NCBI RefSeq assembly: GCF_018771565.1
Contig: NZ_CP076326.1
Coordinates: 992,001-1,056,000 of the forward strand
Source of the DNA: Thermoflexus hugenholtzii
GTDB lineage: Bacteria > Chloroflexota > Anaerolineae > Thermoflexales > Thermoflexaceae
Direction: 5' to 3'
Length of the DNA stretch: 64,000 bases
This document shows, piece by piece, positions 6,701 through 50,728 of the stretch (within the stretch, counting starts at the first letter, position 1; each line of letters begins with the position of its first letter). The position numbers were made by a program, and so were the translations under genes. Under the pieces are notes generated by a model, which was not told the DNA's origin, made no database searches, and worked only from the letters and a program-made list of their open reading frames with translations.

Positions 6701-7289
6701 ACATGAAGGCCATGATGAGATAAGCAGCCACGAAGATGGCGTTCCCCATATGGGAGGCTACCCGGCTGGTGACATCGCCGCCCCAGGGCAGGGGATCCAG
6801 CCGGTAGCGCTGGATCAGGCCGTAGACCGCCACGGGCAGGCTGGTGAGCACCATCGTGAGGGCCAGCCGCTCAAACTGGGCCCGGGTGCGCAGCGCTCCC
6901 AGGAGGCTGAAGAAGATCACCAGATAGGCCAGCCAGCTGTATGCTCCCTGCAACCGCTGATAGGAGCCGAAGAAGCTGGTGTAGGGAACGAGGGAAAGAA
7001 CGCTGGAGATGAGATAGACGACCGCTGAGGCCAGGGCCGGAAGAACCAGAGGGGTTCGCCCGGAGAAGCCGAGGGCCTGGGTGAGCGGGATCCGCTGCCC
7101 CCAGGCCTCGACCAGCTTGATCATCCAGGCAGCCGCCATCACCAGGGCGATGGAGCGCACCAGGGTGAGCTTGTCCGGCTCGAAGACCCGACTGGTGTAG
7201 ATGTTGAAGAACAGGGGGGCGATGACCGCCGCCATCAGCCACCCGGCTTCCAGAACCCGATCGCACCATCGGCTCAGCCGCGTCGACAT
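3756..7289 (-). CDS. O-antigen ligase/polymerase-like membrane protein with TPR tail
   Basis: A 1177-residue protein. The first ~480 residues are multi-helix membrane segments with a large periplasmic-type loop holding GYGPES and SHNETFD, the Wzy_C/O-antigen ligase signature. More helices continue to about residue 800. The last ~350 residues form about six degenerate TPR units (e.g. AILLYRRAIEYAP, YYEEATRLSPNN, YRRLVELQPDHA). It likely polymerises or transfers lipid-linked glycan at the cell surface, with the TPRs as a partner-binding platform. The start is ATG 7289, 16 nt inside the end of the epimerase gene; an ATG at 7301 is possible. It is the last gene of a reverse trio with the epimerase and PHP genes. 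Confidence 0.85.
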   Translation of the reverse strand: MSTRLSRWCDRVLEAGWLMAAVIAPLFFNIYTSRVFEPDKLTLVRSIALVMAAAWMIKLVEAWGQRIPLTQALGFSGRTPLVLPALASAVVYLISSVLSLVPYTSFFGSYQRLQGAYSWLAYLVIFFSLLGALRTRAQFERLALTMVLTSLPVAVYGLIQRYRLDPLPWGGDVTSRVASHMGNAIFVAAYLIMAFMFTLGRLAETFHSILTAEPPRNSDVARGALYVFIATVQAATIYFSFSRGPWLGLMGGLFLFLVLWLVIRRQRKGLFAVLGLSALGFLFLILLNIPNGPLEPLRGSPYIGRLGHIFETETGTGKVRVLIWQGALRLVLPHEPIQDPQGRPDPFHLLRPFIGYGPESMYVAYNRFYPPELAHYEARNASPDRSHNETFDALVHTGLLGFLVYQWLFFSLFAYGLRSLNLIHGGRDRILLLSLWALGAAATGLFFALRFGWHFIGVAIPAGTVLGLLVYLVFATLRASGEPPIQHPHRFMLIALLGAVLAHYIEINFGIAIASTRTWFWAFAAMIVVLGESWLAEPAPARASSAQPAIPARKGKGATRRPRREEPLPSPTRPWWPMIASLGLLMALMLSLLSYEFITNQGQRLDLLSLIVTSLTRLPLQGNRFSPFILVMFLLTAGLGAALVLAEGIRREWLPVGKWSEALALYGLVALGGWLGYTLIHAGLLAALIARAPQTVEDVLRLAEGVAGLFDGLVLFLFVVLVLLVFLISREEPEAGDPSTGLGLLMAPPAWIAVAILVWAVNLNPIRADAIYKQGDPWDKQGQWEVAILLYRRAIEYAPREDFYHLWLGRALLEKASRAPESASRQIPEGVSFERAFQALTLEQLVRLSRGDLLEITRAVLERARDLNPLNTDHTANLARMHRRWADLLLDPRYCRTRIHLPEMPPEFVRHVEQASRYYEEATRLSPNNAVLWNEWASVDLYQRNDLDSAERKLQRSLQLDDRFDQTYQLYGDLLMVRSEVVADPQVQRMSMERAEGFYRRLVELQPDHATGWAALAYLRDQLGRAAEAQAARARLAALLQTRPDGWQSIGDFFLSHADCALERSRAQPLYREAAEAYGQALTANPGALTAALRRGYALRGAGDLEGAVGVFRQALQVAGEHPDVWLFYRELAVTLAMLGRKAEAEEAADQAWRRAPAVEQPGLQALFTQLGLSIRP

Positions 7290-8245
7290 TCCCGCCACCA
7301 CTCCCAGGTTCGTCGCAGACCTTCATCCAGGGTAACACGGGCCTCGAAGCCCAGCAAAACCCGCGCCCGCGAGACCTCCGGAACCCGTCGAGGGGTCTCC
7401 TCAAAACCGGGGCCGTAGACTTCCGAGAACGGCACAAACCGGACCGGCACCGGGCGCCCCGTGATGGCGCGCACTTTCTCCGCCAGCTCCCGGATGGAGA
7501 TCTCCTCTGCACGCCCGATGTTGAAGATCCGCCCGAACGCTTCCGGGAGGAACCCCGCCCGCAGGGTCCCCTCCACTGCGTCCTCCACGTAAATGAAGGA
7601 GCGGGTCTGGCGTCCGTCCCCATACACCGTCAGCGGCTCCCCCCGTAAGGCCTGATCCATGAAACGGGCGATCACATAGCCGTAGCCCTCCGGGTCCGCC
7701 CGAGGGCCGTAGACGTTGAAATAGCGGACCACGCTGACTCGCAGGCCCCGGCCTGCCCATATCATCGCCATGTGCTCGTCCAACAGCTTGCTCACGGCAT
7801 AGATCCATCGGGAAGCCGTCGGCGGGCCCAGCCGCAGATCATCCTCCTCCGCCGCCGGCCAGCGGATGCCTTTCCCGTAGACCTCCGAGGAAGAAGCGAG
7901 ACAGACCGGGAGACCTCGCTCGGCGCAAGCCTCGAGGACCATCTCCGTCCCCCGGACGTTCACCCGCATCGTTCGCAGGGGATCCGCCAGCACCCGCGGC
8001 ACCCCCACCACCGCTGCCAGATGGAACACCCACTCCACGCCTTCGAGAGCCCGGCGAAGGGCGACGGGGTCCGTGACGTCTCCGATGAGGATGCGAAGGC
8101 GGGGATGATCCCGAACCGCCTCCAGGTTCTCCAGGCGTCCCCCGCTCAGATCGTCCAGGACGGTGACAGCATAACCCTCCTGAAGGAGACGCTCCACAAG
8201 ATGGGAGCCGATGAAGCCCGCGCCGCCGGTCACCAGGATCCGCAT
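7274..8245 (-). CDS. NAD-dependent epimerase/dehydratase (extended SDR, sugar-nucleotide epimerase type)
   Basis: The 323-residue length is normal for extended short-chain dehydrogenases of the UDP-glucose 4-epimerase/dTDP-glucose dehydratase group. The N-terminus has the Rossmann motif TGGAGFIGSHL. The catalytic pair is YAVSK, preceded by the SSSEVYG strand. The substrate is probably an NDP-sugar for the surface glycan made by neighbouring genes, but it cannot be fixed from sequence. One nt separates it from the PHP gene upstream and it overlaps the ligase gene downstream, so the three are likely cotranscribed. Confidence 0.9.
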   Translation of the reverse strand: MRILVTGGAGFIGSHLVERLLQEGYAVTVLDDLSGGRLENLEAVRDHPRLRILIGDVTDPVALRRALEGVEWVFHLAAVVGVPRVLADPLRTMRVNVRGTEMVLEACAERGLPVCLASSSEVYGKGIRWPAAEEDDLRLGPPTASRWIYAVSKLLDEHMAMIWAGRGLRVSVVRYFNVYGPRADPEGYGYVIARFMDQALRGEPLTVYGDGRQTRSFIYVEDAVEGTLRAGFLPEAFGRIFNIGRAEEISIRELAEKVRAITGRPVPVRFVPFSEVYGPGFEETPRRVPEVSRARVLLGFEARVTLDEGLRRTWEWWRECRRG

Positions 8246-20740: not shown

Positions 20741-23700
20741 ATGAGGTTTCCAGGGCAAGGTCCGATGCGGCCGGTCGTGCGGATTGGGATCGGGTGGTTG
20801 TGCCTCAGCCTGGGGCTCCTCATCCTGGGGCTGACGGGAGGGATCCTGCGCGCCCGCTGGCGGGGGACCATCGCCGGGTTCCCCCCGCCGATCCCCTGGT
20901 CGGGCGAACCCCGCGTGGGCCTCAACCTCTACCTCTTCGGACAGAACCCTGAAGATCGCCGTCGGGATCTGCAGCAGGTCCGCCAGTTGGGCATCTCCCG
21001 CATCCGCGTCTTCCTCCCCTGGTCGGCCATCCAGCCGGCGCGGGATCAGTGGGACTGGTCGGAGGCGGACCGCGTGATGGTCGACATTCGGGCCGCTGGC
21101 CTGGAGCCGGTGGTGGTGCTGGGGGACAGCCCCGCATGGGCGGCGCGACGGATCGGTCCGATGGCCCCGCCGCTGGATCCCGAGGACTTCGCCCGATTCG
21201 CCAGGGCCTTCGCGGCGCGCTATGGCTCGTGGGTGCGGTTCTATCAGATCTGGGACGAGCCCAACCTGACCATCGGATGGGGCGGGGGAACTCCGGATCC
21301 CGCCGCCTATGCCGCCCTGTTGCGAGCGACAGCGGCCGCGATCCGCGCCGCGGACCCGGACGCGGTGATCCTCCTGGCGGGCCTGGCCCCCACGGTGGAG
21401 CAGGGCCCGTGGAACCTGGCCGACTGGCTGTTCCTGGAGCGGCTGTATCAGCTGGGCGCCCGGGAGTCCTTCGACATCGTTGCCGCCAAGCCCTACGGCT
21501 TCGACACCGGACCGGAGGACCGCCGTGTGGACCCGGAGGTGCTGAATTTCTCCCGGGCGATCCTGCTGCGCGAGGTCATGGTGCGATACGGCGATGAGGG
21601 GAAACCCCTCTGGGCCAGCCACTGGGGATGGAACGCCCTGCCGCCGGGCTGGAGCGGTCGCCCTTCCATCTGGGGGCAAGTGGACGAGGCCACCCAGGCC
21701 CGTTACATCCGGGAGGCCGTCGAGCGGGTCCGGCGGGAGTGGCCCTGGATGGGGACGATGTTCCTGGAGAGCTGGCGCCCGGATGCGCCTTCCGACGATC
21801 CCCGCTGGGGGTTTGCGATGGTCGATCCCCGAGGGCGGCTCCGGCCGGCGGCGGAGGCGCTGCGGGCCGTCGCGAACGGAGCGGTCTTTACTCCCGGATA
21901 CTATCCGGCGGCCATTCCGCAAGCGGAGGGATCCGGCTATGGGCCGCCGCCGGGCGCGCAGTATGAGGGCGCGTGGCGCTTCTCCGCCCTGGGGGCGGAT
22001 ATCGGCCGGGAGGAAGGGGATCGCCTGCGCTTCACCTTTGAGGGGACCGGGCTGGCCCTTCGCGTCCGGCGGGGAGGGTATCGCGCCCATCTTTACGTGT
22101 CAGTGGATGGGCAGCCGGCGAACCGGCTTCCCCGCGACGCCCGCGGCGCGTATTTGATCCTCACCTCCCCGGATTACGCGACCCCAGAGGTGGTCACGGT
22201 TCCGGTGGCCGAGGGTCTGCCCTACGGGCTTCACACCGTTCGGATCGAGGCCGAGCGGGGCTGGGGGCAGTGGGCATTGGTGGGCTGGAGCATCGCGGGG
22301 GTCGGGCCGGATCCGCTCCGGTATCGCCTTGCCCTGGCCCTGAGCCTGCTCGGGGTGGGGATGGGGGGATGGCTGCTCGTCACCGGACTGGTTCAGGCCC
22401 GTCGGCCTCCCCTGCGGGAGATCCTGCAGGCCATCGTCCACCGGCTGGGCCTGTGGGGCGCGTGGGGGCTCTCCGGGCTGGTTTACGCCGGGATGTGGTG
22501 GATCTCGCTGGAGCCGTGGGGGCTCCGGCGCGCGGGGGAGGTGGGGTGGCTGGGGCTGGGGCTGGCCCTGAGCGGGCTTTTCTATCTGGCCCCCCGGGTG
22601 GCCCTCACGGCCCTGGCGGCGTGCCTGCTCCTGATGGTGCTGATCCGACGCCCGTCCTTCGGCCTGGCGCTCACCGCCTTCTGGGCGCCTTTCTATCTAT
22701 ATCCGAAGCCCTTCTTCCAGAAGGCGTTCCCGATGAACGAGCTCATGCTCCTGCTCACCGCGGCCGCCTGGATCCTGCATCGCGGGATCCGCTGGGGGAG
22801 GGGAGAACGGGCACGCTGGGCCTGGGAACCCGCCGATCGATGGATGCTGATCTTCTTCGGCGCGGCCACCCTGAGCACTGCCCTGGCGGCCTTCCAGCGG
22901 GTGGCCTGGCGGGAGTGGCGCCTGGTGATCCTGGAGCCGTTGCTCTTCTATTTCCTGGTCCGGGCGATGCAGCCTTCGCGGGCCGAATGGGAGGCCGTGC
23001 TCAACGCCTTCCTGCTGGGAGGCCTCGGAGCCGCCGGCGTGGGTCTGATCCAGTGGATCACGGGGGTGGGGCTGATCACCGGAGAGGCCGGGGCGCGCTG
23101 TATCCGAGGACCCTACGGTTCTCCCAACAACCTGGCCCTCTATCTGGGGCGGGTCTTCCCGTTCCTGCTGGCGCTGACCCTGAGCGGGAGCTCCCGGCGC
23201 GGGCGCCTTCTGGCCGGGCTGGGCTTGCTGATCGTGGGCGCCGCGCTGATCGGAACCTGTTCGGAGGGAGCCGGGTTCCTGGGGATCCCGGCGGCCCTGA
23301 TGGCGATGGGCGGGCTGTGGCTGTGGGATCGCTGGGGAGGGCTGTCACGAGGGATCCGCTGGGGGCTGATCCTCATGGCGGTGGGAGGGATCCTCCTCTT
23401 CGCCGGAGCGCTGGCGCCGCGCATCGGGGAGGTGCTGGCCCGGCGCGCCGCCACCCCAGGCAGCACCGTCTTCTTCCGCGTCCGCCTGTGGGCCAGCACC
23501 CTGGACCTGATCCGCGAGCATCCGCTCTTTGGGGTGGGGCCGGACAATTTCCTCTACTGGTATCGGAGCCGCTATATCCGCCCGGATGCCTGGCAGGAGC
23601 CGAACCTCTCCCATCCGCATAACGTCTTCCTCGACTTCTGGGCGCGCACGGGGTTGCTGGGATGGATCGCCGGGCTCGCCTGGCAGGTCCTGTTCTGGCG

Positions 23701-23920
23701 TCGGGTCGTCCGGCCCGGGATCTCCGGGGATCCCTGGCGCTGGGGGGCGGCCGGGGCGATGGCCGATCTCCTGGGACACGGCCTGATCGACCAAGGCTTC
23801 TTCCTCATCGACCTGGCCCTGGCGTTCATGATCATCTTCGGCACAGGCCTGGGGATCGCCGACGGATCGCCTCGCTCTGAGCGCCCCCGGCCGGTGGGAA
23901 TCCGCAAGGCGATCGCTTAG
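20741..23920 (+). CDS. Glycoside-hydrolase-like domain fused to O-antigen ligase-like membrane domain
   Basis: 1059 residues. One helix near residues 12-32 is followed by a TIM-barrel-like clan-A hydrolase domain (~55-390) with YQIWDEPNL, placing the putative acid/base at E173. The strand expected to hold the nucleophile reads LWASHWGW, with His294 where clan-A enzymes have Glu. A beta-sandwich, carbohydrate-binding-like domain follows (~410-520), then about 12 membrane helices with the ligase signature GVGPDNF...HPHNVFLDFW near the C-terminus. It likely acts at the outer face of the membrane on a lipid-linked glycan. The start may be ATG 20741 or ATG 20765; neither has a strong ribosome site. 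It converges with, and overlaps by 4 nt, the Tat-exported NodB-like gene. Confidence 0.85.
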   Translation: MRFPGQGPMRPVVRIGIGWLCLSLGLLILGLTGGILRARWRGTIAGFPPPIPWSGEPRVGLNLYLFGQNPEDRRRDLQQVRQLGISRIRVFLPWSAIQPARDQWDWSEADRVMVDIRAAGLEPVVVLGDSPAWAARRIGPMAPPLDPEDFARFARAFAARYGSWVRFYQIWDEPNLTIGWGGGTPDPAAYAALLRATAAAIRAADPDAVILLAGLAPTVEQGPWNLADWLFLERLYQLGARESFDIVAAKPYGFDTGPEDRRVDPEVLNFSRAILLREVMVRYGDEGKPLWASHWGWNALPPGWSGRPSIWGQVDEATQARYIREAVERVRREWPWMGTMFLESWRPDAPSDDPRWGFAMVDPRGRLRPAAEALRAVANGAVFTPGYYPAAIPQAEGSGYGPPPGAQYEGAWRFSALGADIGREEGDRLRFTFEGTGLALRVRRGGYRAHLYVSVDGQPANRLPRDARGAYLILTSPDYATPEVVTVPVAEGLPYGLHTVRIEAERGWGQWALVGWSIAGVGPDPLRYRLALALSLLGVGMGGWLLVTGLVQARRPPLREILQAIVHRLGLWGAWGLSGLVYAGMWWISLEPWGLRRAGEVGWLGLGLALSGLFYLAPRVALTALAACLLLMVLIRRPSFGLALTAFWAPFYLYPKPFFQKAFPMNELMLLLTAAAWILHRGIRWGRGERARWAWEPADRWMLIFFGAATLSTALAAFQRVAWREWRLVILEPLLFYFLVRAMQPSRAEWEAVLNAFLLGGLGAAGVGLIQWITGVGLITGEAGARCIRGPYGSPNNLALYLGRVFPFLLALTLSGSSRRGRLLAGLGLLIVGAALIGTCSEGAGFLGIPAALMAMGGLWLWDRWGGLSRGIRWGLILMAVGGILLFAGALAPRIGEVLARRAATPGSTVFFRVRLWASTLDLIREHPLFGVGPDNFLYWYRSRYIRPDAWQEPNLSHPHNVFLDFWARTGLLGWIAGLAWQVLFWRRVVRPGISGDPWRWGAAGAMADLLGHGLIDQGFFLIDLALAFMIIFGTGLGIADGSPRSERPRPVGIRKAIA

Positions 23921-25968: not shown

Positions 25969-28900
25969 TCATCCGCCGCGCATAACCAGCGGCAGGAACA
26001 GGCGGAGGCGAACCTGCGTCTGGACCTCCGCGGAGGCGGGTGTGGGGTCCACCGCCCGCGAAACAGCCTCAACCCGGACGCGGATCTCCGGGCTGGTCCA
26101 CCGCTCGACCCGCACGCGCAGCCGGACCGTGGCGTTCTCTCCAACCGGGAGATCCCCGAGGGCACAGGAAGCCTCTACGCAGGAGCCCGAGGAAGGCGTC
26201 GCGTCCAGAACCTGCACGCCATCGGGCAGGGTGAACGTGACCTGCACCCCGGGCGCCAGGGAGGGGCCGGTGTTGGTCAGAGCCAGGGTGTAGGTGACCA
26301 CCTCGCCGACGAAGACGGGGTCCGGCTCCCCGGAGAGGAGGAGCTGCAGATCCGCCTCCCCTCGCACCTCGGTGGAAGCCAGCGCCTCATTGTTCCCACT
26401 GTTCGCATCCGGGGTCCCCGCCCGGACCTCCGCCTGAGCGATCAGCACCATGCCCTCAGGGACCTCTGCCGGCACGGTCCCGGTGACGAGGAGCGTCTGA
26501 ACAGCTTCTGCCGGCATGGTTCCCATAGCACAGATGATTCGGTTCCCGTCCAAACTGCAACCGCTGATCGGGGTGAAACCATCCACCTGCCATGAGATTG
26601 GCAGGGTCAGCGTGAGAACCACCCCCTGCGCGTCGGATGGCCCGGCGTTGGTCAGGGTGAGGGTGTAGGTGAGGAGGGTCCCCGCCACCACGGGATCCGG
26701 CTCATCCCGAAGCGTCAGGCTCAGATCGGCCTGGGTTTGGACGGTGGTGGTTTCGGCGGCGGTGTTGTTGGCCGGGTTGGGATCCGGGGTGGAGGCGGAC
26801 GCCTGGGCGGAGAGGGTCAGGCTCCCTGCCGGGGTGCCGGCGTTGACCCGGGCCTGCAGCAGAAGGGTGGCCGTCCCGCCCGCCGACACGTCCCCCAGGG
26901 CGCAGGTGCTCATCCCGCAGGTTCCCTGGGAGGGGGAGAGGCCCAGGACGGTCAGGCCGCTTGGAAGGGTGAGGGTCACCTGGACCCCGCGCGCATCGGA
27001 TGGCCCGGCGTTGGTCAGGGTCAGGGTGTAGGTGAGGAGGGTCCCCGCCACCACGGGATCCGGCTCGTCCCGAAGCGTCAGGCCCAGATCCGCCTGGGTC
27101 TGCACGGTGGTGAAAGCCGTCGCCGTGTTGTTGACGGTGTTCGGATCGGGAGTGGCGGAGGTGGCCTGGGCGATGGCGGAGAGGGTGGTGCCCGGGAGGA
27201 TGCGGCTGTTGACCCGGGTGGTGACGGTGATGCGGGCGATGTTCCCGGCAGGGAGGGTGCCCAGGGTGCAGGTGGCGTCGGCGCAGGAGCCCTGGGAGGG
27301 GATCCAGGCGATGGGCGTCACGCCATCGGGGAGAGCGAGCTCGACCGCCACCGACTGGGCGTCGGAAGGCCCGGTGTTAGCCAGGGTGAGGGTGTAGGTG
27401 AGCCACGCTCCGGCCAGCACGGGGTCAGGGGCATCGTTCATCGTCAGGGCCAGATCGGCCTGGGTTTGGACGGTGGTGGTTTCGGCGGCGGTGTTGTTGG
27501 CCGGGTTGGGATCCGGGGTGGAGGCGGACGCCTGGGCGGAGAGGGTCAGGCTCCCTGCCGGGGTGCCGGCGTTGACCCGGGCGCGCAACAGAAGGGTGGC
27601 CGTCCCGCCCGCCGGCACGTCCCCCAGGGCGCAGGTGCTCATCCCGCAGGTTCCCTGGGAGGAGGAGAGGCCCAGGACGGTCAGGCCGCTTGGGAGGGTG
27701 AGGGTCACCTGGACCCCGCGCGCGTCGGATGGCCCGGCGTTGGTCAGGGTCAGGGTGTAGGTGAGGAGGGTTCCCGCCACCACGGGATCCGGCTCGTCCC
27801 GAAGCGTCAGGCTCAGATCGGCCTGGGTTTGGACGGCCGTGGAAACCGTCGCCGTGTTGTTGGCGGGATCGTCCGGGGTGTCGGTGCCGACGATCACCTG
27901 GTTCGCCAGGGTTCCCTCAGAGGTGTTGCTGTTCACCCGGACCCGGATATTGACCGTGGCGACGCCGCCCGGGTTCAGGGTCCCCAGGTCGCATGTGAGG
28001 GTGGTGCATGTGCCCTGGGAAGGCGTGGACGCGATCCACGTCATCCCACCAGGCAGCGTATCCGTCACCCGCACGTTCTGAGCCGGGAGCGGACCGCTGT
28101 TCGTGATCCAGATAGTGTAAGTGAGCTCGTTCCCGGCGAGGACCGTGCCGGAGGATGCCTCCTTGCGCACGGTGAGATCGGCGAGCTCCGAATACGAGAG
28201 CACCACCTCTCGCACCTCTGGGGACCACATGGGATTGGTGGTGCTCATCTCCACCCGGTATTGCAAATAGCGAGCGAAGGCCAGCGCAGGAGGAATGTTA
28301 TTCGGGCCTGTCGGGAGGGGATCGGACCAGTCCGACCAGTTTGCGCCGTCCATCGAGGTGCGAACGCGGAAGGCGAGGGTAGTGGTGGATGGCACGGTGG
28401 CATCCCATGCAAGGATGTCCCAGCGGACCTTCTGGCCGGCATCCTGGGGGCACGAAGTGTAGGTCCCGCTCCCCACATACTGGCCCGCGCGCACCCAATC
28501 GATGTCCGTGGGCGTAGAGCCGTAAAAGGAGGGGGTTTGGTGATACAGGAACACCCATGAGGTGACCACTTGGGTGGAGGAGAGGATGGTAGCCTGCAAG
28601 GCCCCATCGATATAATAGCGCGTCACCTCCGGCTCCCACTCAATGCGGAAAACGTGAAATTGCGTCTCATCAGGATCCGGGTCGATGTCCACATCTGCCA
28701 TCGGCCCATCGCCATCCCGGGCCCGCACGATCAGGTTGTTGCTATCGCTGTTGCCCAGGATGAACAGGCGAATGGAGCTAGCAGGAGTGAAGGGGTTATA
28801 GAGCGGACCGATCTCTCGATAGAATCCCAAGTCTACATTCCCCGAGGTGTCAGGGCTCTGCATCAGCCGGGCTCGGGCCTCGAAGAAGCGGGGGAGCTGG

Positions 28901-29292
28901 GTCATCGTGAGGACCGAGCGCAGATACATGCCATCCAGGGAGACCAGGCCGTTGGCCACTGTGATGGCTTGATAGGGGCCTGCCTCCGGGTTGGAGACGC
29001 TGATCACCCAGCGCGCCCCATCGATGGCGGTGCCGTCGAAATCGTCCTCCACACTCGCAGTGAGGTGCAACTCTCCTCCCTCCGCGTTGCCCACGGAGAT
29101 GCCGGTGGAGATGGCGCACACCACGGCGAAATCCGCCACACGGGTGTGGGTGATGACACCGGTCCCCTGCGCCCGGGCGACCGGGACGGGCGTGCCGCTC
29201 AGGATCCCCATCGCGCCGATGAGGAGGGCCAGGAGGATCCCGGCCAGGAGGATGGTCAGGGCGCTCCGGCGAAGCGGTCGCGCTGTTCTCAT
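25969..29292 (-). CDS. Secreted protein with concanavalin-like domain and six DUF11 repeats
   Basis: 1107 residues. A Sec signal peptide (hydrophobic ~11-32, cleavage probably near ARAQ) is followed by a lectin/glucanase-like jelly roll (~70-260) and a linker domain. Six DUF11 beta-sandwich repeats of ~121 residues then start at ADLTVRKEA (~380) and recur with ADLSLTLRDEPDPVVAG or close variants. The C-terminus ends LFLPLVMRGG, a motif shared with other exported proteins here. It is likely a long rod-like cell-surface adhesin or scaffold. Repeats 2 and 4 are nearly identical in DNA while the repeat between them is divergent. It lies 12 nt after the acyltransferase-3 gene. Confidence 0.88.
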   Translation of the reverse strand: MRTARPLRRSALTILLAGILLALLIGAMGILSGTPVPVARAQGTGVITHTRVADFAVVCAISTGISVGNAEGGELHLTASVEDDFDGTAIDGARWVISVSNPEAGPYQAITVANGLVSLDGMYLRSVLTMTQLPRFFEARARLMQSPDTSGNVDLGFYREIGPLYNPFTPASSIRLFILGNSDSNNLIVRARDGDGPMADVDIDPDPDETQFHVFRIEWEPEVTRYYIDGALQATILSSTQVVTSWVFLYHQTPSFYGSTPTDIDWVRAGQYVGSGTYTSCPQDAGQKVRWDILAWDATVPSTTTLAFRVRTSMDGANWSDWSDPLPTGPNNIPPALAFARYLQYRVEMSTTNPMWSPEVREVVLSYSELADLTVRKEASSGTVLAGNELTYTIWITNSGPLPAQNVRVTDTLPGGMTWIASTPSQGTCTTLTCDLGTLNPGGVATVNIRVRVNSNTSEGTLANQVIVGTDTPDDPANNTATVSTAVQTQADLSLTLRDEPDPVVAGTLLTYTLTLTNAGPSDARGVQVTLTLPSGLTVLGLSSSQGTCGMSTCALGDVPAGGTATLLLRARVNAGTPAGSLTLSAQASASTPDPNPANNTAAETTTVQTQADLALTMNDAPDPVLAGAWLTYTLTLANTGPSDAQSVAVELALPDGVTPIAWIPSQGSCADATCTLGTLPAGNIARITVTTRVNSRILPGTTLSAIAQATSATPDPNTVNNTATAFTTVQTQADLGLTLRDEPDPVVAGTLLTYTLTLTNAGPSDARGVQVTLTLPSGLTVLGLSPSQGTCGMSTCALGDVSAGGTATLLLQARVNAGTPAGSLTLSAQASASTPDPNPANNTAAETTTVQTQADLSLTLRDEPDPVVAGTLLTYTLTLTNAGPSDAQGVVLTLTLPISWQVDGFTPISGCSLDGNRIICAMGTMPAEAVQTLLVTGTVPAEVPEGMVLIAQAEVRAGTPDANSGNNEALASTEVRGEADLQLLLSGEPDPVFVGEVVTYTLALTNTGPSLAPGVQVTFTLPDGVQVLDATPSSGSCVEASCALGDLPVGENATVRLRVRVERWTSPEIRVRVEAVSRAVDPTPASAEVQTQVRLRLFLPLVMRGG
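26669..27760 (-). repeat. Tandem ~363-bp DUF11 coding repeats in an A-B-A' pattern
   Basis: Three consecutive units of 363, 366 and 363 bp. The first and third match almost base for base with a 729-bp offset (26722-27081 against 27451-27810, only a few mismatches by eye), while the middle unit is clearly diverged. This suggests recent duplication or gene conversion within the gene. Confidence 0.8.
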
Positions 29293-32316: not shown

Positions 32317-35202
32317 TTAGGGAGGTCCGGTATGCAGGATCACCGGCATGAACACACGGTAACGGAACCGGGTTAGGACCTGGAGGTCAAATTGTTGGGA
32401 ATTCGTATGGGGATCGCTCTCAGCTACAACCGAGCGGGCCTGGGCGCTGAGGCGGACGATCCCGGTGAAGTCTGGGTCCACGCGGAGCCTGATCCAGAAC
32501 GTGGCCTGCCGATTGGGGGGGAGGGCTTCCAGATCCCAGCGTGCATCTAATCCGTTCATGCACGGAGGATCACATGCCTCCAGGGTGAGACTCAGCGGCC
32601 ATGAGGCTTCCAGCTGCACAGCCCGCGCGGTGCTGGGCCCTGCGTTTTCCAGGGCTATCGTGAAGGTGACCGGCTGGCCGGCGATCACCGGGTTCGGCTC
32701 TACCTGGCCGGACAGGATCAGGTCGACGAGTGCAGCGATCGAGGCGGTTGGGGTGAAGCGGGTCTCTCCTTGCAGCACGGTTTCGGTTGAAGAAACCTCT
32801 GTGGGGACGGCGAGCTCCCCCAGCGCCTCCGGCTGCAGATCCAGAACGCTGATCAGGATCTGGGCCTGACCGGGAGACAGCCGGTCTATCCGCCAGCTCA
32901 GCGCGGTTGCCTCAATCTGACATGGAGAGGGGCCACATGTGCGGGCCGTGGCGAAGAGCGGAAACGTGGAGCGCACATTTAACCCCCGCGCCTCTGCCGG
33001 CCCGGTGTTCGTCAGGATGAGGGTCAGCGTCACCGGCTCGCCGGCCACAGGGGACACCGGGCTCCACTCCCCGCTCCCCTGAATCCAGGCCACCGGCGGG
33101 AGCGTCGGCGTGGGGCTGGGTGTCGGACTTGGCGTCACCGTTGGAGTCGGGCTGGGTATGCGGGTGGGCGTAGGTGTAGGACTGGGAGTCGCCCTCGGGG
33201 TCGGGCTCGGCTGGGGCGTGAACGTTGGCGTGGGGCTTGGAACCACAGTGGGCGTCGGGCTGGAAGTGGGTGTGGACGTCAGGGTAGCGCTTGGGCTGGG
33301 AGTGGGTGTGGGCGTTTGCTCCCCGAAAGAAACCTCCAGCCCATGAGAGCCAGGGCTTAGAAGGAGGAAGATCCCCGGGATCCCCCGGAGCGTTTGAGGC
33401 ATGAGCGGGACGAGCTGGCCATCCACACGGGCTTCGCGGATCTCCCATGTCCCAAAGCGCTGCGGAAGCCAGAGCGTATGAGAAAAGGAGAGCGTGGGCG
33501 TGCTGACAAAGGTGAACGAGAGGCGTCCTGAGGTCCCATCCCACTGCACATCCTGAATTCGCGCGGCATCCCGGTTGAGCACATAATCCAGCCACTGATC
33601 CGCGGTCCAAATCGGCATCCCCCGGGATCGTGCGGCCGCCATGATCGATTCCGCCCACGGCCGGATCTCCCCCCAGTTGTAATAATCCACATGGAAGTTA
33701 GCCACGAAGGCGGAGTGGTAGGCGCGAAGCCCGTCGTCCATCATGGCGATGACCTGAGCTGCATCCCGATTCCAGTCCGGATAGAAAGGCTGGGCCATGT
33801 ATTGCTCGTCCACGATGTTGGTAAGCTGCTGGTAGACCGGCAGGATCTCCCCGTTGAGATCCACGAAGCGCATCGGAAGCCCGCTCCCGGTCAGATACCC
33901 ATGGGCCTGAGTTCCGTCCGGGCGTGCGGTCACCTGGCCGCGCATGTAGTAGTCTAAGTTCAAGAGGAAACCGAACTCCGCATGAACGCGCGCGTTTCCT
34001 ACCCAGCCGGACCCCATACGGATCTGATGGGTGCGGATGGAGGGGGAAAGCGGAGGACCATAACAACGCATGAAGCGCTCGCGGGTGCGCATCGTGCTGG
34101 TTCGGAAATCTCCGAAGTCGTTTCCCCATTCATCCGTGCCGACATAAGGATGAATCCCGACGGTGTGTCCGGCTGCCCGCCATGCGTTCACCGAACTCGG
34201 TGTGGGCGCGCTCGGACATGAATCGAAGTTTAAAGTGAGGAAAAACGTCGCACGGGCATTGAAGGACTCAATGCTGGCCAGCTCCCCTTCGTAATAGCTC
34301 TGAGGGTTCCCGTGGGCATCCGCGGTGAGGATCAGGAGGCTGAGGGCACCGTTCGGGAAATACCAAAGCTGAGGCATGGGAGCGGCTGTGGCCAGGCCCT
34401 CCCGGATCAGCCGCGAGAGCAGCCGCATCTGTTCATCGGCCTGAGGGATAGCGATACGCTCCAGATCGATCCATCCGCTGAACACATCGGTGGTGCGAAG
34501 GATCCCATCCGGCTCCCGATCCTGCCCCACCCAGTCCGGATTCCCCTGGCGGGTCAGCGCGACGCTGCGGGCCAGATCGTAGCCCCAGAACACCGCCCAT
34601 CCGTTCCCCCGCGTCACGCGCCCGATGGCCGCGAACCCGCTGTTTGTATCTCGATCCCGATAAAACCAGGCGATCACTTCCACCCCATCCGCGACATAAA
34701 GATCTCCCACCCCATGAAACTGAAGGCTCTCCGTGACCAGCCCCTGAACAAGCGGATGCCCTGGCTCAAATCGGATGTAAGCCTCCGAGATGGCCCCACC
34801 GGTGTTCCAGCCCATGGCGGCTCGTAACTCCGGCGAGGGGCGCATAGCGATGAGATGGCCTCCGTTCCGCACGTAATCCCGTAAGATCCCGGCCTGCGTC
34901 GTGTTGAGAGGGATCTCAGCCACCAGAAGGACCGGATACATTTGCAGAAGGGTAGGGGAGAGGGAGGAAGGAGAGATCACATCATAAGCGGCCCAGCCCT
35001 CCGCCCGAAGGATCTCAGCCAGATAGGGCCCGAAGGGGTTCGGAGCCACCGGATCCGTTAGGAGCGCCAGCCGGATACCGCCCCCGCTTTGCGCTCGCGT
35101 TCTGAAGGAGGGAGGCAGGAACAATAAAATCCCCAGCATCAGAGCGCATCCCAGCCATCCGATCCCGATCCAGCGAGATCTGCGAAGACGAATGGGGCTC
35201 AT
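32317..35202 (-). CDS. Exported NodB-like protein with Thr-Pro linker and two DUF11-like domains
   Basis: 961 residues. N-terminal signal or anchor helix (about 13-35), a GATase/DUF4350-like domain (~45-230), then a divergent NodB-type barrel (~300-560) with LTADAHG, GIHPYV, RTHQIRMGSG and GSGLPMRF, matching the paralogue at 23917-25905. A ~70-residue linker made almost only of Thr, Pro and Ser follows, then two DUF11-like beta domains and a C-terminus RVFMPVILH, related to the LPLV motif of its neighbours. The start is ATG 35202, overlapping the esterase stop by 4 nt. Probably a surface enzyme held off the cell by the linker. Confidence 0.75.
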   Translation of the reverse strand: MSPIRLRRSRWIGIGWLGCALMLGILLFLPPSFRTRAQSGGGIRLALLTDPVAPNPFGPYLAEILRAEGWAAYDVISPSSLSPTLLQMYPVLLVAEIPLNTTQAGILRDYVRNGGHLIAMRPSPELRAAMGWNTGGAISEAYIRFEPGHPLVQGLVTESLQFHGVGDLYVADGVEVIAWFYRDRDTNSGFAAIGRVTRGNGWAVFWGYDLARSVALTRQGNPDWVGQDREPDGILRTTDVFSGWIDLERIAIPQADEQMRLLSRLIREGLATAAPMPQLWYFPNGALSLLILTADAHGNPQSYYEGELASIESFNARATFFLTLNFDSCPSAPTPSSVNAWRAAGHTVGIHPYVGTDEWGNDFGDFRTSTMRTRERFMRCYGPPLSPSIRTHQIRMGSGWVGNARVHAEFGFLLNLDYYMRGQVTARPDGTQAHGYLTGSGLPMRFVDLNGEILPVYQQLTNIVDEQYMAQPFYPDWNRDAAQVIAMMDDGLRAYHSAFVANFHVDYYNWGEIRPWAESIMAAARSRGMPIWTADQWLDYVLNRDAARIQDVQWDGTSGRLSFTFVSTPTLSFSHTLWLPQRFGTWEIREARVDGQLVPLMPQTLRGIPGIFLLLSPGSHGLEVSFGEQTPTPTPSPSATLTSTPTSSPTPTVVPSPTPTFTPQPSPTPRATPSPTPTPTRIPSPTPTVTPSPTPSPTPTLPPVAWIQGSGEWSPVSPVAGEPVTLTLILTNTGPAEARGLNVRSTFPLFATARTCGPSPCQIEATALSWRIDRLSPGQAQILISVLDLQPEALGELAVPTEVSSTETVLQGETRFTPTASIAALVDLILSGQVEPNPVIAGQPVTFTIALENAGPSTARAVQLEASWPLSLTLEACDPPCMNGLDARWDLEALPPNRQATFWIRLRVDPDFTGIVRLSAQARSVVAESDPHTNSQQFDLQVLTRFRYRVFMPVILHTGPP

Positions 35203-36506
35203 GGCTCCCTCACCGAATAGCAGACGAGATCTTCCCACGCACACAGCGGCTTGCGGGACATCCCCCCCAGGAGGTTGGGAGGCGCAGGCCTGAGGTCAGG
35301 GCGGGGGCGGATGAGCTGGAGCGCCACACGCCAGCGGCCCGCCGGCAGATCCAGCCGCAGACGTCCCCCGATGGGCCTCACCTCCCGCCGGACGAGCTGC
35401 GCTCCTGTCTGCTCATCGAACACCTCCACCCGCACCCGTGAACCCACCGGATACCAGGCCGGCGTGATCACCGTCAGCGCATCCTCGGTGCGAACGATGA
35501 ATCCCTGCGGCGTGACCTCCCGGACCTCCGACCACGCGTCCGCTCGGGTCCTGGCCATCGTCATCCCATAAACCGTGCGGCTCCGGGCCATGGCGAACCG
35601 GTAAGACCATGGAGCGGGAACAGGCCGGGCTCCCCGAAAGACCGGCACCAGATATTCAAAGATGCGCGCGATCTCCAGGGACGAGACCTCATGCCCCAGC
35701 CCCGGGAGCTCCTCCCAGTGGTGGGGATACGCCAGGGCTTCCAGCGCCTCATGCATCCGCCGGCTGTGAGCCGGGTGGACCTCCGGGTCCGCCCCGCCGT
35801 GGAGGATAAGAAGGGTCAACCCCTTCAGGTTCACCGCCAGCTCCATGGGGTTATCCGCCCCAACCCGAAGGGGATCGGCTCCGGGCGGACCGTAAACGGC
35901 GCGCAGCGCGCTGGAGTCATGGCGCGTGAGATCCAGAACCCCCGCGATGGAGACCGCCGCCGCGAACCGGTCCGGCCGATGGGCCGCCAGGGAGAACGCG
36001 CCCTTCCCCCCCATGGAGAACCCCACCAGCGCCCGCCCCCCCGGATCCCGACGCACCGGATATCGGTGCTCCACCCAGGGGAGCACGCCCTGAAAGAACC
36101 AGTCATAAAACGAAACTTTCCACGCCGATCCCCGGGGCCACGGAAGCCCAGCGTAGATCGAGTAATACGAAGGGACTTCTCCGTCCTCCCCTTGCAGCGC
36201 CACCAGCATCACATGGGCCGCATCGGCAGCTTGCTCCAGGTCCGGCCGTTCCCACATCCCCAAGCCCATCGCCCATCCGGAGAGCAGATAAATGACCGGG
36301 TAGGGCGCGTGGGCCGGGAACCCCGCCGGACGGTAGATCCGCACCTCATGGGCTTCCCCCTGCCAGGACACCGTCCAGCTCTCCCAGCTCCCGGCGGTCA
36401 TCGGGCTGGCCCACGCCGCGACCTCCAGCCTCCCGGGTGCCAACCCGATGGCCATCCCCAGGATCCACCATCCGATCCTCCGGATCCCCTTCCTCGCTGC
36501 CCCCAT
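35199..36506 (-). CDS. Exported alpha/beta-hydrolase, esterase D/feruloyl esterase-like
   Basis: 435 residues. A membrane or signal helix at about 11-33 precedes an alpha/beta hydrolase domain. The nucleophile elbow is GFSMG (S164). The acid is likely in HGGADPEVHP and the catalytic His in GLGHEVSS. These are typical of the putative-esterase family that removes acyl groups from sugars. The C-terminal ~120 residues form a separate beta-rich domain. Clustering with two acyltransferases suggests it trims acyl groups on the surface glycan. It is coupled by ATGA overlap to the next gene. Confidence 0.82.
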   Translation of the reverse strand: MGAARKGIRRIGWWILGMAIGLAPGRLEVAAWASPMTAGSWESWTVSWQGEAHEVRIYRPAGFPAHAPYPVIYLLSGWAMGLGMWERPDLEQAADAAHVMLVALQGEDGEVPSYYSIYAGLPWPRGSAWKVSFYDWFFQGVLPWVEHRYPVRRDPGGRALVGFSMGGKGAFSLAAHRPDRFAAAVSIAGVLDLTRHDSSALRAVYGPPGADPLRVGADNPMELAVNLKGLTLLILHGGADPEVHPAHSRRMHEALEALAYPHHWEELPGLGHEVSSLEIARIFEYLVPVFRGARPVPAPWSYRFAMARSRTVYGMTMARTRADAWSEVREVTPQGFIVRTEDALTVITPAWYPVGSRVRVEVFDEQTGAQLVRREVRPIGGRLRLDLPAGRWRVALQLIRPRPDLRPAPPNLLGGMSRKPLCAWEDLVCYSVREP

Positions 36507-36539: not shown

Positions 36540-37805
36540 CTACCGATCCGATGCGCGCTGGATCAGCGGAAGATGGATTCGAAACTCAACGGCCCGGGTG
36601 GTGAACCCCAGGCCATCCCCGGGGGTCCAGTCGCTGCTGCCTCCGGCGTTCGCCGATCGCACTTGCAGACAGTAAAAGGCGCCGGGGCTCAACGCGTCCA
36701 GAACCAGGGAATGCGTTCGCTTTGGGTCCGAATTAGACAGGGATTGGCTCCACGCTCCGCAGACGTTCCCCCATCGGACCTCGCTGGTGGCCTCCACATC
36801 CGTGGTCCAGGTCACCACAGCGCTCGTGGCCAGAGGGAAGACCGCCGGTCCCGAGAGGATCACCGGTGGGGGAGGGATGGCGAAGGGGGTGTCAGAGACG
36901 TAAACCGGCCCAGCCGGGCGATCGGCGGATCCATAGCGACATGCCCCCGGGTTCATGCCCGTGGCATCCGTCACGGTGCCTGTGCACGGGCCCTCCGGTC
37001 CCTCATCGAAATGATAGAGCGCGACGGTGTCCCCGTCCGGTGTGAACGGGGCGCGGGGCGGGGTGAACCCCCCTTCATACCGGATGATCCGGGAGATCCG
37101 CACCTCGTCGATCCATCCGCTATAAGAGGGATAGGTGGCGCGATCCACATCATGCTTCTCCGCCCCGATGACCAGATAAGGATCGTTGGGATAGCTCGTG
37201 CTCCGACCGTCCCGATACCGGATGTCGCCCGCGGGCCCCCAGCCGGTCGCATCCAGCCTCCCGTCCACAAAGATCTGCATCCGCCCGTCGCTCCCGCGCC
37301 GGGTGACGGCGATGTGGTGCCAGTTTCCATCTGCCACCAGGAGGGATCCACACAGGGTGAATCCGTCTCCTCCTCGATTCACCCCGAAGGCGATCCGCCC
37401 CCCGGCCAGGGAGATCCCGTAATCCCCATAGTCGCCCGGCCCGAAGACATCACGGTCGAAGAGGATGTTGCCGAAGATCCAGAGATCCCCCGCTGCCGAC
37501 AAGCACGCCGAGCTGGGGTTCTCCGTCCGCGTGGCTTTCATCCACCATTCGATGGTGAGATCCCCGCCGAGGTTGATGGATCGCCCCTCCACCGGGATCT
37601 TCACCCGATCGATGTCCCCGTCTCCGTTGCCATAGAAACGAAGGGAGAAGCCGCTCACCCCCTGAGCCGGATGCACGATCCCCAGGGGGAGCAGCCATCC
37701 CAGCAACAGGAGGCTTCTCCATCCCCGGACACGCAGCCGGCAAGGCTCCCGGGATCTCGTTCCCTGGCCGATCTCGCGCGTGGCCGCACTGTTTCGGCGT
37801 CCCAT
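36540..37805 (-). CDS. Exported LamG-domain and fibronectin III-like protein
   Basis: 421 residues. The signal helix is at about 29-47, preceded by Arg-rich sequence. A LamG/concanavalin-like domain follows (~50-260) with the typical EWWMKA, NWHHIAVT and GWIDEVRISR strands. An Fn3-like domain follows (~310-400: VTWTTDVEATSEVRWG). The C-terminus reads FRIHLPLIQR, one of the shared terminal motifs. It is a non-enzymatic surface protein, probably binding glycan. The start ATG 37805 overlaps the stop of the upstream GT2 gene by one base (TGATG). Confidence 0.85.
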   Translation of the reverse strand: MGRRNSAATREIGQGTRSREPCRLRVRGWRSLLLLGWLLPLGIVHPAQGVSGFSLRFYGNGDGDIDRVKIPVEGRSINLGGDLTIEWWMKATRTENPSSACLSAAGDLWIFGNILFDRDVFGPGDYGDYGISLAGGRIAFGVNRGGDGFTLCGSLLVADGNWHHIAVTRRGSDGRMQIFVDGRLDATGWGPAGDIRYRDGRSTSYPNDPYLVIGAEKHDVDRATYPSYSGWIDEVRISRIIRYEGGFTPPRAPFTPDGDTVALYHFDEGPEGPCTGTVTDATGMNPGACRYGSADRPAGPVYVSDTPFAIPPPPVILSGPAVFPLATSAVVTWTTDVEATSEVRWGNVCGAWSQSLSNSDPKRTHSLVLDALSPGAFYCLQVRSANAGGSSDWTPGDGLGFTTRAVEFRIHLPLIQRASDR

Positions 37806-39046
37806 CACGCTGGGTGGGAGATGGAGAGAGGTTGAGGGAGGGGCTCCGTGGGTGAGGCCACCGCGCCGGCGGCCAAGTCCTGGCGGATCCGCAGCTCCCG
37901 CTGGCTGAGCTCGGACAGCGCCCGCACCAGGATCCAGGCGGTAATCAGGTCCACGCCCATCAGCACGGTGAGGGCGCTGACGGCGGGGACGAACCAGGGG
38001 GCCGGGAACGGGGGCGCGGTCAGCCCGGCCATGGCCGCCCACCCGTAGAGGATGAGGCCGGCGGCGACGCTGAGGAGCCCCAGCGGCAGGAACCGACGCT
38101 CCAGAGGCTGGCGGAACAGCGGGCGCCCGAACAGCCCCTGGCGGATGGGCCGCTTGTGGAACAGCGAGACCAGGTAATTGAACAGCGTGCCCACCGCGAA
38201 CAGATGAGCCCCCAGGGCGCCCAGGACCACCGCGGCGAACAGTCGGGGGAAGGGCCAGCCCCCAGGGCCGGGCCAGAGAAAGGCGCTGAGCCCCAGCCCG
38301 GCGCCGGCGACGATCAGCCCGAAACCGGCCATCCCGAACACCCGGACCGGGTTGTAGGTCATCACCGTCCAGACGATGGCGTGGAGGAAACGCACCCCAT
38401 CCTGCAGCGGGTGCAGCTTGGATTGCCCCAGGCGCTCCCGATAGGGGATGGGCACCTCGATCATGCGCAGGCCCTCGTAGATGGCCCGGGCGCTCATCGC
38501 CGGGGTGAAGTTCAAGCCATCGGGCAGGGGATACAAGCGTTCCAGGATCTCCCGGCGCAACAGACGCATCCCGCTGGCGCTGTCGCTGATCGCAGCGCTC
38601 CCCAGCACCCGTAGCAGGAAGGCGAACCCCCAGTTGCCGATGCGCCGGACCAGGGGCATCTCCGACTCCGCGCGGCCCATGCGGGATCCAACGACCATGT
38701 CCGCCCCGCTGGCCCGCGCGGCCCGGTAGAGATCCGGGAGGGATTCCGGGGGATAGGTGGCGTCGGCATCCAGGAAGGCCAGCCATTCCCCCCGGGCATG
38801 GGCGAAGCCGGTCTTGAGCGCGGCCCCATATCCCCGGTTGACCGGATGGCGGATCAATCGGACTTCCGGATAAGCGCTCACGATCTCCGCCGTGCGGTCC
38901 CGCGAGCCATCATCGACCACGATCACTTCCCAGTCTGTGAAGCCGGCCTCCTGAAGCGCCGGGCCGACGGCCCGCATCCGCTCCAGCACAGCGCCGATGG
39001 CTCTCTCCTCGTTATAGGCGGGGATCACAATCGATAGCATGCTCAT
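37805..39046 (-). CDS. GT2 polyprenyl-phosphate glycosyltransferase (DPM1-like) with membrane tail
   Basis: 413 residues. The N-terminal GT-A domain has IVIPAYNEE, VVDDGSRDRT and DADATYPPE, the usual donor and metal sites of dolichol-phosphate mannosyltransferase-like enzymes. Four membrane helices follow from about 240. Such enzymes charge polyprenyl phosphate with one sugar, to be used outside the cell by GT-C enzymes. It lies directly after the heptose and acyltransferase genes, so the sugar could be a heptose or another residue of the same glycan. The start overlaps the acyltransferase stop by 4 nt. Confidence 0.9.
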   Translation of the reverse strand: MSMLSIVIPAYNEERAIGAVLERMRAVGPALQEAGFTDWEVIVVDDGSRDRTAEIVSAYPEVRLIRHPVNRGYGAALKTGFAHARGEWLAFLDADATYPPESLPDLYRAARASGADMVVGSRMGRAESEMPLVRRIGNWGFAFLLRVLGSAAISDSASGMRLLRREILERLYPLPDGLNFTPAMSARAIYEGLRMIEVPIPYRERLGQSKLHPLQDGVRFLHAIVWTVMTYNPVRVFGMAGFGLIVAGAGLGLSAFLWPGPGGWPFPRLFAAVVLGALGAHLFAVGTLFNYLVSLFHKRPIRQGLFGRPLFRQPLERRFLPLGLLSVAAGLILYGWAAMAGLTAPPFPAPWFVPAVSALTVLMGVDLITAWILVRALSELSQRELRIRQDLAAGAVASPTEPLPQPLSISHPA

Positions 39047-39840
39047 GGAGATCCCTCCCGGGACAAAACCATGGATTGAACGGCCGGGAGACCGCCGTGG
39101 AAGATCGGACCCTCCACCGGCCGGGGGGTCTCCCGCCGGCTGCCCACCACCCGCGCCGGGACGCCTACCGCGATGGCGTAAGGAGGGATGTCCTGGGTGA
39201 CCACCGCTCCCGCGCCCACCACGGCGCCCCGCCCGATGCGCACTCCGTCCAGGACCACCGCCCCGCCGCCCAGCCAGACGTCATCCTCGATGACGATGCC
39301 GCGGGCGGTGATGCCCTGCTCCGCGATCAGCCGATCTGGATCCGCGAACACGTGGTTGACCGCCAGGATCTGGACCATCGGGCCGGTGTAGACGAAATCC
39401 CCGATGGTCACGCCCCCCTGCCCCCGGATGACGTTGTATTCGCCAATGAAGCAACGTCGCCCGATAGTGATGCCGGAGCCCGGCAGGCCCCGGAAGTTGT
39501 AGACGTGGAGCACCGAGCCGTGCATGATCACCGTCCCCTCGCCGATGACGATGCCCTTCGGGCAGGCGTGGAGGTAAACGCCTTCATCCAGATAGACCCC
39601 GCGCCCCAGGGTGATCCGCCGGGGCTGGGCCAGGCGCACGCCTCGGGCGATGTAGGGGAAACCCCGAGCGTTCAGGATCAGACGATAGGCCAGGCCTCTC
39701 AGGGCGATCCCCAACAGCCCGGGGAGATCCCGGAGCACAGCCATCAGGGACTGCTCCAGAAAATAAGCGCCCCATCCGGTGGACTGAGCGCGGATGTAAA
39801 GATCCAGGGCTTCAACCCAGCGGGAGGGCCAGCGGCGCAT
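39043..39840 (-). CDS. Left-handed beta-helix (hexapeptide repeat) acyltransferase
   Basis: 265 residues. From about residue 75 the sequence shows hexapeptide repeats (GEGTVIMHGSVL, IGDFVYTG, IEDDVWLGGGAVVLDGVRIG) ending in VVTQDIPPYAIAVGVPA. This is the terminal signature of sugar O-acetyltransferases of the NodL/WbbJ/maltose acetyltransferase type. The catalytic His is likely in the AVNHVFADP loop. It probably acetylates a glycan precursor in the cytoplasm. The ATG has GAGGCG upstream and overlaps the gmhB end by 29 nt. Confidence 0.9.
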   Translation of the reverse strand: MRRWPSRWVEALDLYIRAQSTGWGAYFLEQSLMAVLRDLPGLLGIALRGLAYRLILNARGFPYIARGVRLAQPRRITLGRGVYLDEGVYLHACPKGIVIGEGTVIMHGSVLHVYNFRGLPGSGITIGRRCFIGEYNVIRGQGGVTIGDFVYTGPMVQILAVNHVFADPDRLIAEQGITARGIVIEDDVWLGGGAVVLDGVRIGRGAVVGAGAVVTQDIPPYAIAVGVPARVVGSRRETPRPVEGPIFHGGLPAVQSMVLSREGSP

Positions 39841-41024: not shown

Positions 41025-41028
41025 GGCC

Positions 41029-42033: not shown

Positions 42034-42328
42034 CCACGCAGGCTCCCGAAGACAGGATCGTGCAACACTGAGAATAAAAGGGGGGAGTTGGGCTGGGATA
42101 AACGAAAAGTTAGGAAAACGTGGAGGGGATACGCACCGATAAGGGCAGGAGGATTTAACCAATCGGTTGGAATCTCTTGGGGGGCTCTTCTGCTTCCGGT
42201 TCAGCCTTGGCTGTCCTCTGAAAAAGGAGCAGAAGGCGAAGTCGGCGCGCAGGGAGGATGCACGAATCTGGATTATCATAACTAATGAAGGACAAGCGGT
42301 GCCCAGTCATCCGGAGGGCAAGGATGCG
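42034..42328. other. Divergent intergenic region between hddA and the HEPN gene
   Basis: 295 nt, visibly more AT-rich than its surroundings around 42070-42300. It must hold the divergent promoters for the 18-kb reverse array and for the HEPN/MNT pair. Weak -10-like hexamers (reverse TATTCT, 42071-42076; forward TATCAT, 42274-42279) lack convincing -35 partners. I see no RNA gene or clear operator. Confidence 0.4.
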
Positions 42329-50653: not shown

Positions 50654-50693
50654 GGGAACCCCCTTTCGGCACAAAGGCCGGAGAGAGGTCCGC

Positions 50694-50712
50694 CAGGCGC
50701 CTGAGGCGCCTG
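50694..50712 (-). terminator. Short perfect hairpin between lipoprotein and macroglobulin genes
   Basis: CAGGCGCC (50694-50701), loop TGA, GGCGCCTG (50705-50712). It lies in the 75-nt gap just after the lipoprotein stop. No T-run follows; partial termination or attenuation before the macroglobulin gene is possible. Confidence 0.4.
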
Positions 50713-50728
50713 ATCGGATCCCCATCGT

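What the first reader, a model, noticed from the sequence alone, without database searches (positions are those of the whole stretch)
20741..23920. O-antigen ligase fused to a hydrolase-like domain that seems to lack the catalytic nucleophile
The N-terminal barrel keeps the acid/base segment (DEP, E173), but the strand that should carry the nucleophile Glu reads ASHWGW with His294. The domain may therefore bind glycan rather than cut it, and could measure or present the polymer to the ligase domain. The fusion order hydrolase, beta-sandwich, polymerase is unusual.
Basis: partly seen in the sequence, partly recalled or inferred. Interest (0 to 1): 0.62.

Follow-up and report, generated by a model that had tools for sequence, protein, structure and literature searches.

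The report
Polymerase fused to dead sugar-cutting domain
In this hot-spring bacterium, and in every sampled relative of its class that carries the gene, a membrane enzyme of the sugar-chain-joining kind has at its front a sugar-cutting domain whose cutting residues are partly or wholly replaced, so the domain probably grips the chain instead of cutting it, which offers a natural test of why polysaccharide-building machines carry cutting enzymes at all.

Summary
Window 20741-23920 (+) encodes a 1059-residue Thermoflexus protein: membrane anchor, GH39 barrel (closest known: PslG), CBM/CE2-like jelly roll, Wzy_C polymerase/ligase. PslG's nucleophile Glu276 aligns with His294 on strand beta-7; acid/base Glu173 remains. 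The gene is not decaying (barrel dN/dS 0.10-0.16 in most comparisons). The fusion is common in Chloroflexota: 160 distinct copies were read. All 36 that keep the full set (Asn172, Glu173, Glu294, Trp343) lie outside Thermoflexus' class. None of the 121 from its class keeps it; position 294 there varies widely (E, A, N, H, S, Q, D, G and others), while Trp171, Pro174, Asn175, Trp180, Gly296 and Trp297 stay almost fixed. The same group gained a Trp-x-x-Trp motif in the jelly roll (0/36 intact against 92/121). Most likely the barrel became a non-cutting glycan-binding domain that holds the polymer for the polymerase in cis. Binding and catalysis are untested. Two cautions: Glu343 is a possible relocated nucleophile in Thermoflexus, and its Wzy_C domain has Glu where the Arg215 counterpart of E. 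coli WaaL belongs. The fusion order is not unusual within the phylum. No report of this family was found in the open literature searched.

The parts
20741..23920 (+). Whole gene, 1059 aa: TM anchor, GH39-like barrel, CBM/CE2-like jelly roll, multi-TM Wzy_C polymerase/ligase
20771..20860 (+). N-terminal membrane helix, residues 11-40
   Evidence: helix 11-40 in the model; hydrophobic sequence
20903..21886 (+). GH39/PslG-like (beta/alpha)8 barrel, residues 55-382
   Evidence: PslG E 1.5e-20; PslG Z 32.9, other GH39 Z 27-30
21254..21259 (+). Asp172-Glu173: clan-A Asn changed to Asp, acid/base Glu kept
21620..21622 (+). His294 in place of the catalytic nucleophile Glu (PslG Glu276)
21767..21769 (+). 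Glu343 after beta-8, where intact homologues have invariant Trp
21896..22300 (+). Beta-sandwich (jelly roll) like CE2 N-domain/CBM35/CBM6, residues 386-520
   Evidence: separate model pLDDT 87; fold matches CE2, CEX, CBM35, Z 10-12.7
22262..22273 (+). Trp508-x-x-Trp511 (WGQW) motif of the jelly roll, gained together with loss of the GH catalytic set
   Evidence: 0/36 intact, 78/100 lost, 14/21 both-Glu members
22313..23851 (+). Multi-TM polymerase/ligase region, residues 525-1037
   Evidence: helices in model
23222..23668 (+). Pfam Wzy_C (PF04932), residues 828-976
   Evidence: 68.3 bits, cut-off 31.7
23264..23266 (+). Glu842 where most homologues have Arg/Lys (inferred counterpart of E. coli WaaL Arg215)
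   Evidence: WaaL residue roles from PMC3643930
23477..23479 (+). Arg913, invariant (counterpart of MagA Arg290 / WaaL Arg288)
23612..23620 (+). His958-Pro-His960, both His invariant (His960 = MagA His323 / WaaL His338 by spacing)

Best explanation
A membrane-anchored Wzy_C-type glycan polymerase/ligase carries in cis a PslG-like GH39 barrel and a CBM-like jelly roll on the outer side of the membrane. In Thermoflexus and across its class the barrel has lost part or all of the residues for retaining glycoside hydrolysis; in Thermoflexus it is most likely kept as a non-cutting glycan-binding domain. It would hold the growing polymer or its acceptor, together with the jelly roll, next to the polymerase active site and so help set acceptor choice or chain length; the ancestral fused enzyme would have trimmed as well as held. 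Shown here: architecture, homology, loss of the nucleophile, class-wide relaxation of the catalytic sites, purifying selection, retention of the central Wzy_C Arg/His. Inferred: glycan binding, orientation outside the membrane, handing the polymer to the polymerase.
For: His294 aligns with PslG Glu276, anchored by flanking W291, G296 and W297. PslG Glu276 is the nucleophile by covalent crystal structure (PMC11912335), and Glu165/Glu276 are needed for PslG function in the cell (PMC9075953). Of 160 distinct fusions, 36 keep N/E/E/W, all outside the class; 121 from the class do not. Of 45 sites with no change in the intact set, the three with most changes in the other set are 355, 343 and 294 (45, 43 and 36 parsimony changes), while P174, N175, W180 and G296 have none and W171, W291 and W297 one or two. 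Thermoflexus dN/dS for the barrel is 0.10-0.16 in 13 of 15 pairs, against 0.13-0.26 for the ligase. The jelly roll matches carbohydrate-binding folds and gained W508/W511 with the GH change. The own genome keeps stand-alone GH39 paralogues with both catalytic Glu.
Against: No binding or activity data. 22 of 124 non-intact members keep both catalytic Glu and might still cut. Glu343 could act as a relocated nucleophile in Thermoflexus. The Wzy_C domain of Thermoflexus lacks Arg at position 842, so its transferase activity is itself unproven. Neighbouring genes do not form a polysaccharide operon, so the polymer is unknown.
Confidence: 0.65

Rival explanations
1. The barrel is still an enzyme with a rebuilt active site: Glu173 plus Glu343 and/or Asp172 do the chemistry (relocated nucleophile, inverting or transglycosylating mechanism).
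For: Asp172, Lys250, Glu343 and Arg355 are concerted changes in Thermoflexus and close relatives; Glu173 kept in 99 of 124; Glu/Asp at 343 in 37 of 124.
Against: Position 343 is also A, Q, P, S, N, T and others with 43 changes on the tree; the acid/base is lost in 25 of 124.
Confidence: 0.15
2. Both ends are inactive: the Wzy_C domain has also lost function in Thermoflexus (Arg842 to Glu, Arg787 to Cys) and the protein is a scaffold.
For: All six full-length Thermoflexus proteins have SEG instead of SRG and Cys787; Arg215 matters in E. coli WaaL (PMC3643930).
Against: Arg913, His958, His960, Asp965, His1013 and Asp1017 are retained; ligase dN/dS is low; K, V and A also occur at 842 in other members of the family.
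Confidence: 0.13
3. The barrel is a decaying relic without function.
For: Catalytic residues lost and replaced by many different residues.
Against: Purifying selection as strong as on the ligase; fold and aromatic cleft conserved at class scale; gain of a Trp motif in the next domain.
Confidence: 0.04
4. Some class members stay hydrolases (both Glu kept, 22 of 124) and the family inactivated several times independently; Thermoflexus is one such case, without a common binding role.
For: E versus non-E at 294 needs about 10 changes on the Wzy_C tree.
Against: All 22 also have Asp172 and no Trp343, so their activity is doubtful.
Confidence: 0.2

Closest known systems
PslG of Pseudomonas aeruginosa (GH39; PDB 5bx9, 4zn2, 9g17)
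   Same: Best sequence and fold match of the barrel; anchored at the inner membrane and associated with polysaccharide assembly proteins (PMC9075953); acid/base Glu aligned
   Different: PslG is a separate protein and has Glu276; here the barrel is fused to a Wzy_C protein, has His294 and lacks the beta-8 Trp and the Asn of NEP
Intact GH39-jelly roll-Wzy_C fusions of other Chloroflexota classes (e.g. L061, L067, L014)
   Same: Same domain order and length; related Wzy_C part
   Different: Keep NEP, nucleophile Glu and beta-8 Trp; often beside a stand-alone GH39 gene; lack W508/W511 together
Wzy_C proteins: O-antigen ligase WaaL, PglL, capsule polymerase MagA
   Same: Pfam Wzy_C over cut-off; Arg913, His960, Gly931, Gly971 match MagA Arg290, His323, Gly308, Gly334 by spacing
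   Different: No GH or CBM domain described in the papers read; Thermoflexus has Glu at the inferred position of WaaL Arg215
Pseudo-glycosidases such as heparanase 2 (abstract of PMC12406646)
   Same: Glycosidase relative without catalysis
   Different: Eukaryotic, other GH family, not fused to a polymerase (from own knowledge)

Membership tests
GH39 (PslG-like) fold | (beta/alpha)8 barrel related to GH39 by sequence and fold | tested here: met
GH39 retaining glycosidase | Acid/base Glu after beta-4 in NEP | tested here: inconclusive
   Glu173 present but in DEP instead of NEP
GH39 retaining glycosidase | Nucleophile Glu on beta-7 | tested here: not met
   His294; same in all Thermoflexus sequences covering the site
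GH39 retaining glycosidase | Clan-A Trp at the end of beta-8 | tested here: not met
   Glu343
GH39 retaining glycosidase | Hydrolysis of a beta-glycoside | not testable with these tools
   needs an assay
Wzy_C (PF04932) polymerase/ligase | Pfam score over cut-off, multi-TM topology | tested here: met
   68.3 bits against 31.7; helices
Wzy_C (PF04932) polymerase/ligase | Arg and His of the large loop (MagA Arg290/His323) | tested here: met
   Arg913, His960
Wzy_C (PF04932) polymerase/ligase | Arg of the SRG motif (WaaL Arg215), inferred by spacing | tested here: not met
   Glu842
O-antigen ligase WaaL in the strict sense | Transfers O antigen to lipid A-core | not tested
   presence of an outer membrane or LPS genes was not examined
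CBM35/CBM6/CE2-N jelly roll | Jelly-roll fold | tested here: met
   Z 10-12.7; CE2_N hint below cut-off
CBM35/CBM6/CE2-N jelly roll | Binds carbohydrate | not testable with these tools
   needs an assay

The most novel reading that the evidence does not exclude
A whole bacterial class has turned the hydrolase of a covalent hydrolase-polymerase machine into a polymer-gripping gauge in cis, with the old catalytic positions retuned in each lineage to its own glycan, so that chain length or acceptor choice is set by binding instead of cutting.
Probability: 0.3. Interest if true: 0.75.

Novelty: new variant of a known kind. Interest (0 to 1): 0.6.

Why it matters
Why a polysaccharide synthesis cluster needs a glycosyl hydrolase is stated as unresolved (abstract of PMC9075953). 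Here the hydrolase is covalently tied to a Wzy_C protein, with catalytic and catalytically stripped versions of the same machine in sister lineages. Comparing them separates the binding role from the cutting role. It also gives a large example of catalytic residues relaxing while the fold and aromatic cleft of a glycosidase are held by selection.

Tried and rejected
Artefact or sequencing error: rejected, His294 recurs in seven Thermoflexus genomes. Chance alignment at 294: rejected, flanks W291, G296 and W297 are almost invariant. Decay: rejected by dN/dS. GH5 or GH42 as the family: PslG/GH39 rank first by sequence and fold; Glyco_hydro_42 was below cut-off. Shared polysaccharide operon: neighbours of 16 non-intact and 13 mostly intact loci gave no common pathway family; housekeeping genes dominate. 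Immediate stand-alone GH39 neighbours were seen in intact loci only, but loci were not sampled at random. Literature: no paper found on GH39-Wzy_C fusions; only the open library was searched. Occurrence outside Chloroflexota was not tested.

Full report
Observation. Window 20741-23920 (+) is one open reading frame of 1059 residues. Glu173 sits in WDEPN and His294 in ASHWGW. Pfam finds Wzy_C (E 8e-19) at the C-terminus and only sub-threshold hints for the front. The PDB sequence search identifies the front as a relative of PslG, GH39, E 1.5e-20, with the alignment pairing Glu173 with Glu165 and His294 with Glu276. In PslG these are the acid/base and the nucleophile; a covalent adduct on Glu276 has been seen (PMC11912335).

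Structure. An AlphaFold model built on 64 aligned sequences has mean pLDDT 89. The eight barrel strands are 59-63, 87-93, 122-128, 167-170, 209-211, 246-249, 290-295 and 337-342, so His294 lies on beta-7, where clan-A enzymes have the nucleophile, and Glu343 lies directly after beta-8, where they have Trp. The best structural matches are PslG (Z 32.9) and then other GH39 enzymes (Z 27-30). The second domain, modelled alone (pLDDT 87), matches CE2 N-domains, the CEX esterase domain and CBM35/CBM6 modules at Z about 10-12.7.

Where it comes from. The genome is Thermoflexus (NCBI class Thermoflexia). It has four further GH39-like places; the ones read keep NEP or NEQ and the nucleophile Glu, so ordinary GH39-type sites exist in the same cell.

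Breadth. The fusion is common in Chloroflexota. From samples of 400 genomes of the phylum and 249 of the class, 160 distinct fused proteins were read out. Thirty-six have Asn172, Glu173, Glu294 and Trp343; all are from other classes of the phylum. The other 124 do not; 121 of them are from the window's class (GTDB grouping as given by the tool, plus Thermoflexus records) and 3 from elsewhere in the phylum. In the 124, position 294 is E 36, A 19, N 18, H 14, S 14, Q 11, D 4, G 3, T 2 and R, F, L 1 each; position 173 is E 99, Q 15, N 8, A 1, D 1. One hundred and two lack at least one catalytic Glu; 22 keep both but have Asp172 and no Trp343. PslG and 56 of 61 stand-alone homologues have Asn-Glu, and 55 of 61 have Glu at 294, so the intact state is taken as ancestral. 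Loci were chosen by score and spread over families, not at random, and some are close relatives.

Pattern of change. On a tree built only from the Wzy_C part, intact versus not intact needs 2 changes, E versus non-E at 294 about 10, and the residue at 294 changes 36 times. Of 45 barrel sites without change in the intact set, the ones that changed most in the other set are 355, 343 and 294; P174, N175, W180 and G296 did not change, and W171, W291 and W297 changed once or twice. So strong relaxation is confined to the catalytic positions and a few neighbours. Within Thermoflexus, dN/dS of the barrel is 0.10-0.16 in 13 of 15 pairs, the jelly roll mostly 0.06-0.10, the ligase 0.13-0.26; the two least diverged pairs give higher, unreliable barrel values. 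The jelly roll has W508 and W511 together in 92 of 121 aligned members of the non-intact group and in none of 36 intact ones.

The polymerase half. Arg913, His958, His960, Asp1017 and His1013 are invariant in both groups and Asp965 nearly so. By spacing, Arg913 and His960 correspond to Arg290 and His323 of MagA, whose alanine mutants lose capsule (PMC3485256), and to Arg288 and His338 of WaaL. The third WaaL residue, Arg215 (PMC3643930), corresponds to position 842, which is Glu in all six full-length Thermoflexus proteins, and Arg or Lys in intact fusions. Whether the Thermoflexus enzyme still transfers glycans is therefore open.

Interpretation. The best-supported reading is a Wzy_C enzyme with an attached, non-cutting glycan-binding module derived from a PslG-like hydrolase. 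In P. aeruginosa PslG is anchored at the inner membrane by Psl assembly proteins and its two Glu are needed for normal Psl behaviour (PMC9075953), so coupling between hydrolase and assembly is known; here it is covalent, and in one class the cutting residues have been given up in part or whole. The alternative that Glu343 serves as a new nucleophile cannot be excluded for Thermoflexus, but the position is not kept in the group.

Context. The gene follows mreB, mreC, a PBP2-type gene and a proline dehydrogenase gene on the same strand and is not in a polysaccharide operon. In many intact loci a stand-alone GH39 gene lies directly upstream of the fusion; none was seen next to 16 non-intact loci. 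In one family the stand-alone neighbour carries HEP and Ala at the nucleophile site while the fused copy is intact (L061, L077, L079, L082, L087).

Verdict. Observation confirmed; interpretation supported for loss of the standard catalysis and plausible for binding; 'unusual fusion' not supported within the phylum. Novelty: new variant of a known kind.

Noticed in passing
window 3756-7301 (-): A second Wzy_C fusion in the same window: Wzy_C followed by a long C-terminal TPR array, beside a GDP-mannose-dehydratase-like epimerase.
   Followed up: partly
window 37805-42279 (-): Glycosyltransferase, hexapeptide transferase, HAD, SIS and GHMP kinase genes in a row, looking like a nucleotide-heptose cluster.
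   Followed up: no
L061, L077, L079, L082, L087: Stand-alone GH39 genes near an intact fusion that have themselves lost the nucleophile (HEP, Ala), the reverse of the Thermoflexus case.
   Followed up: partly
window 23264-23266: Glu842 in the SRG position of Wzy_C in all full-length Thermoflexus copies, Arg/Lys in intact fusions.
   Followed up: partly
window 44705-50725 (-): 2006-residue bacterial alpha-2-macroglobulin with four Big_5 domains.
   Followed up: no
window 25969-29292 and 32317-35244 (-): DUF11-repeat surface proteins flanking a radical SAM and an acyltransferase gene.
   Followed up: no
L195 406-6687: Two adjacent fused GH39-Wzy_C genes, both without the nucleophile, HQ..G and DE..A.
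   Followed up: no
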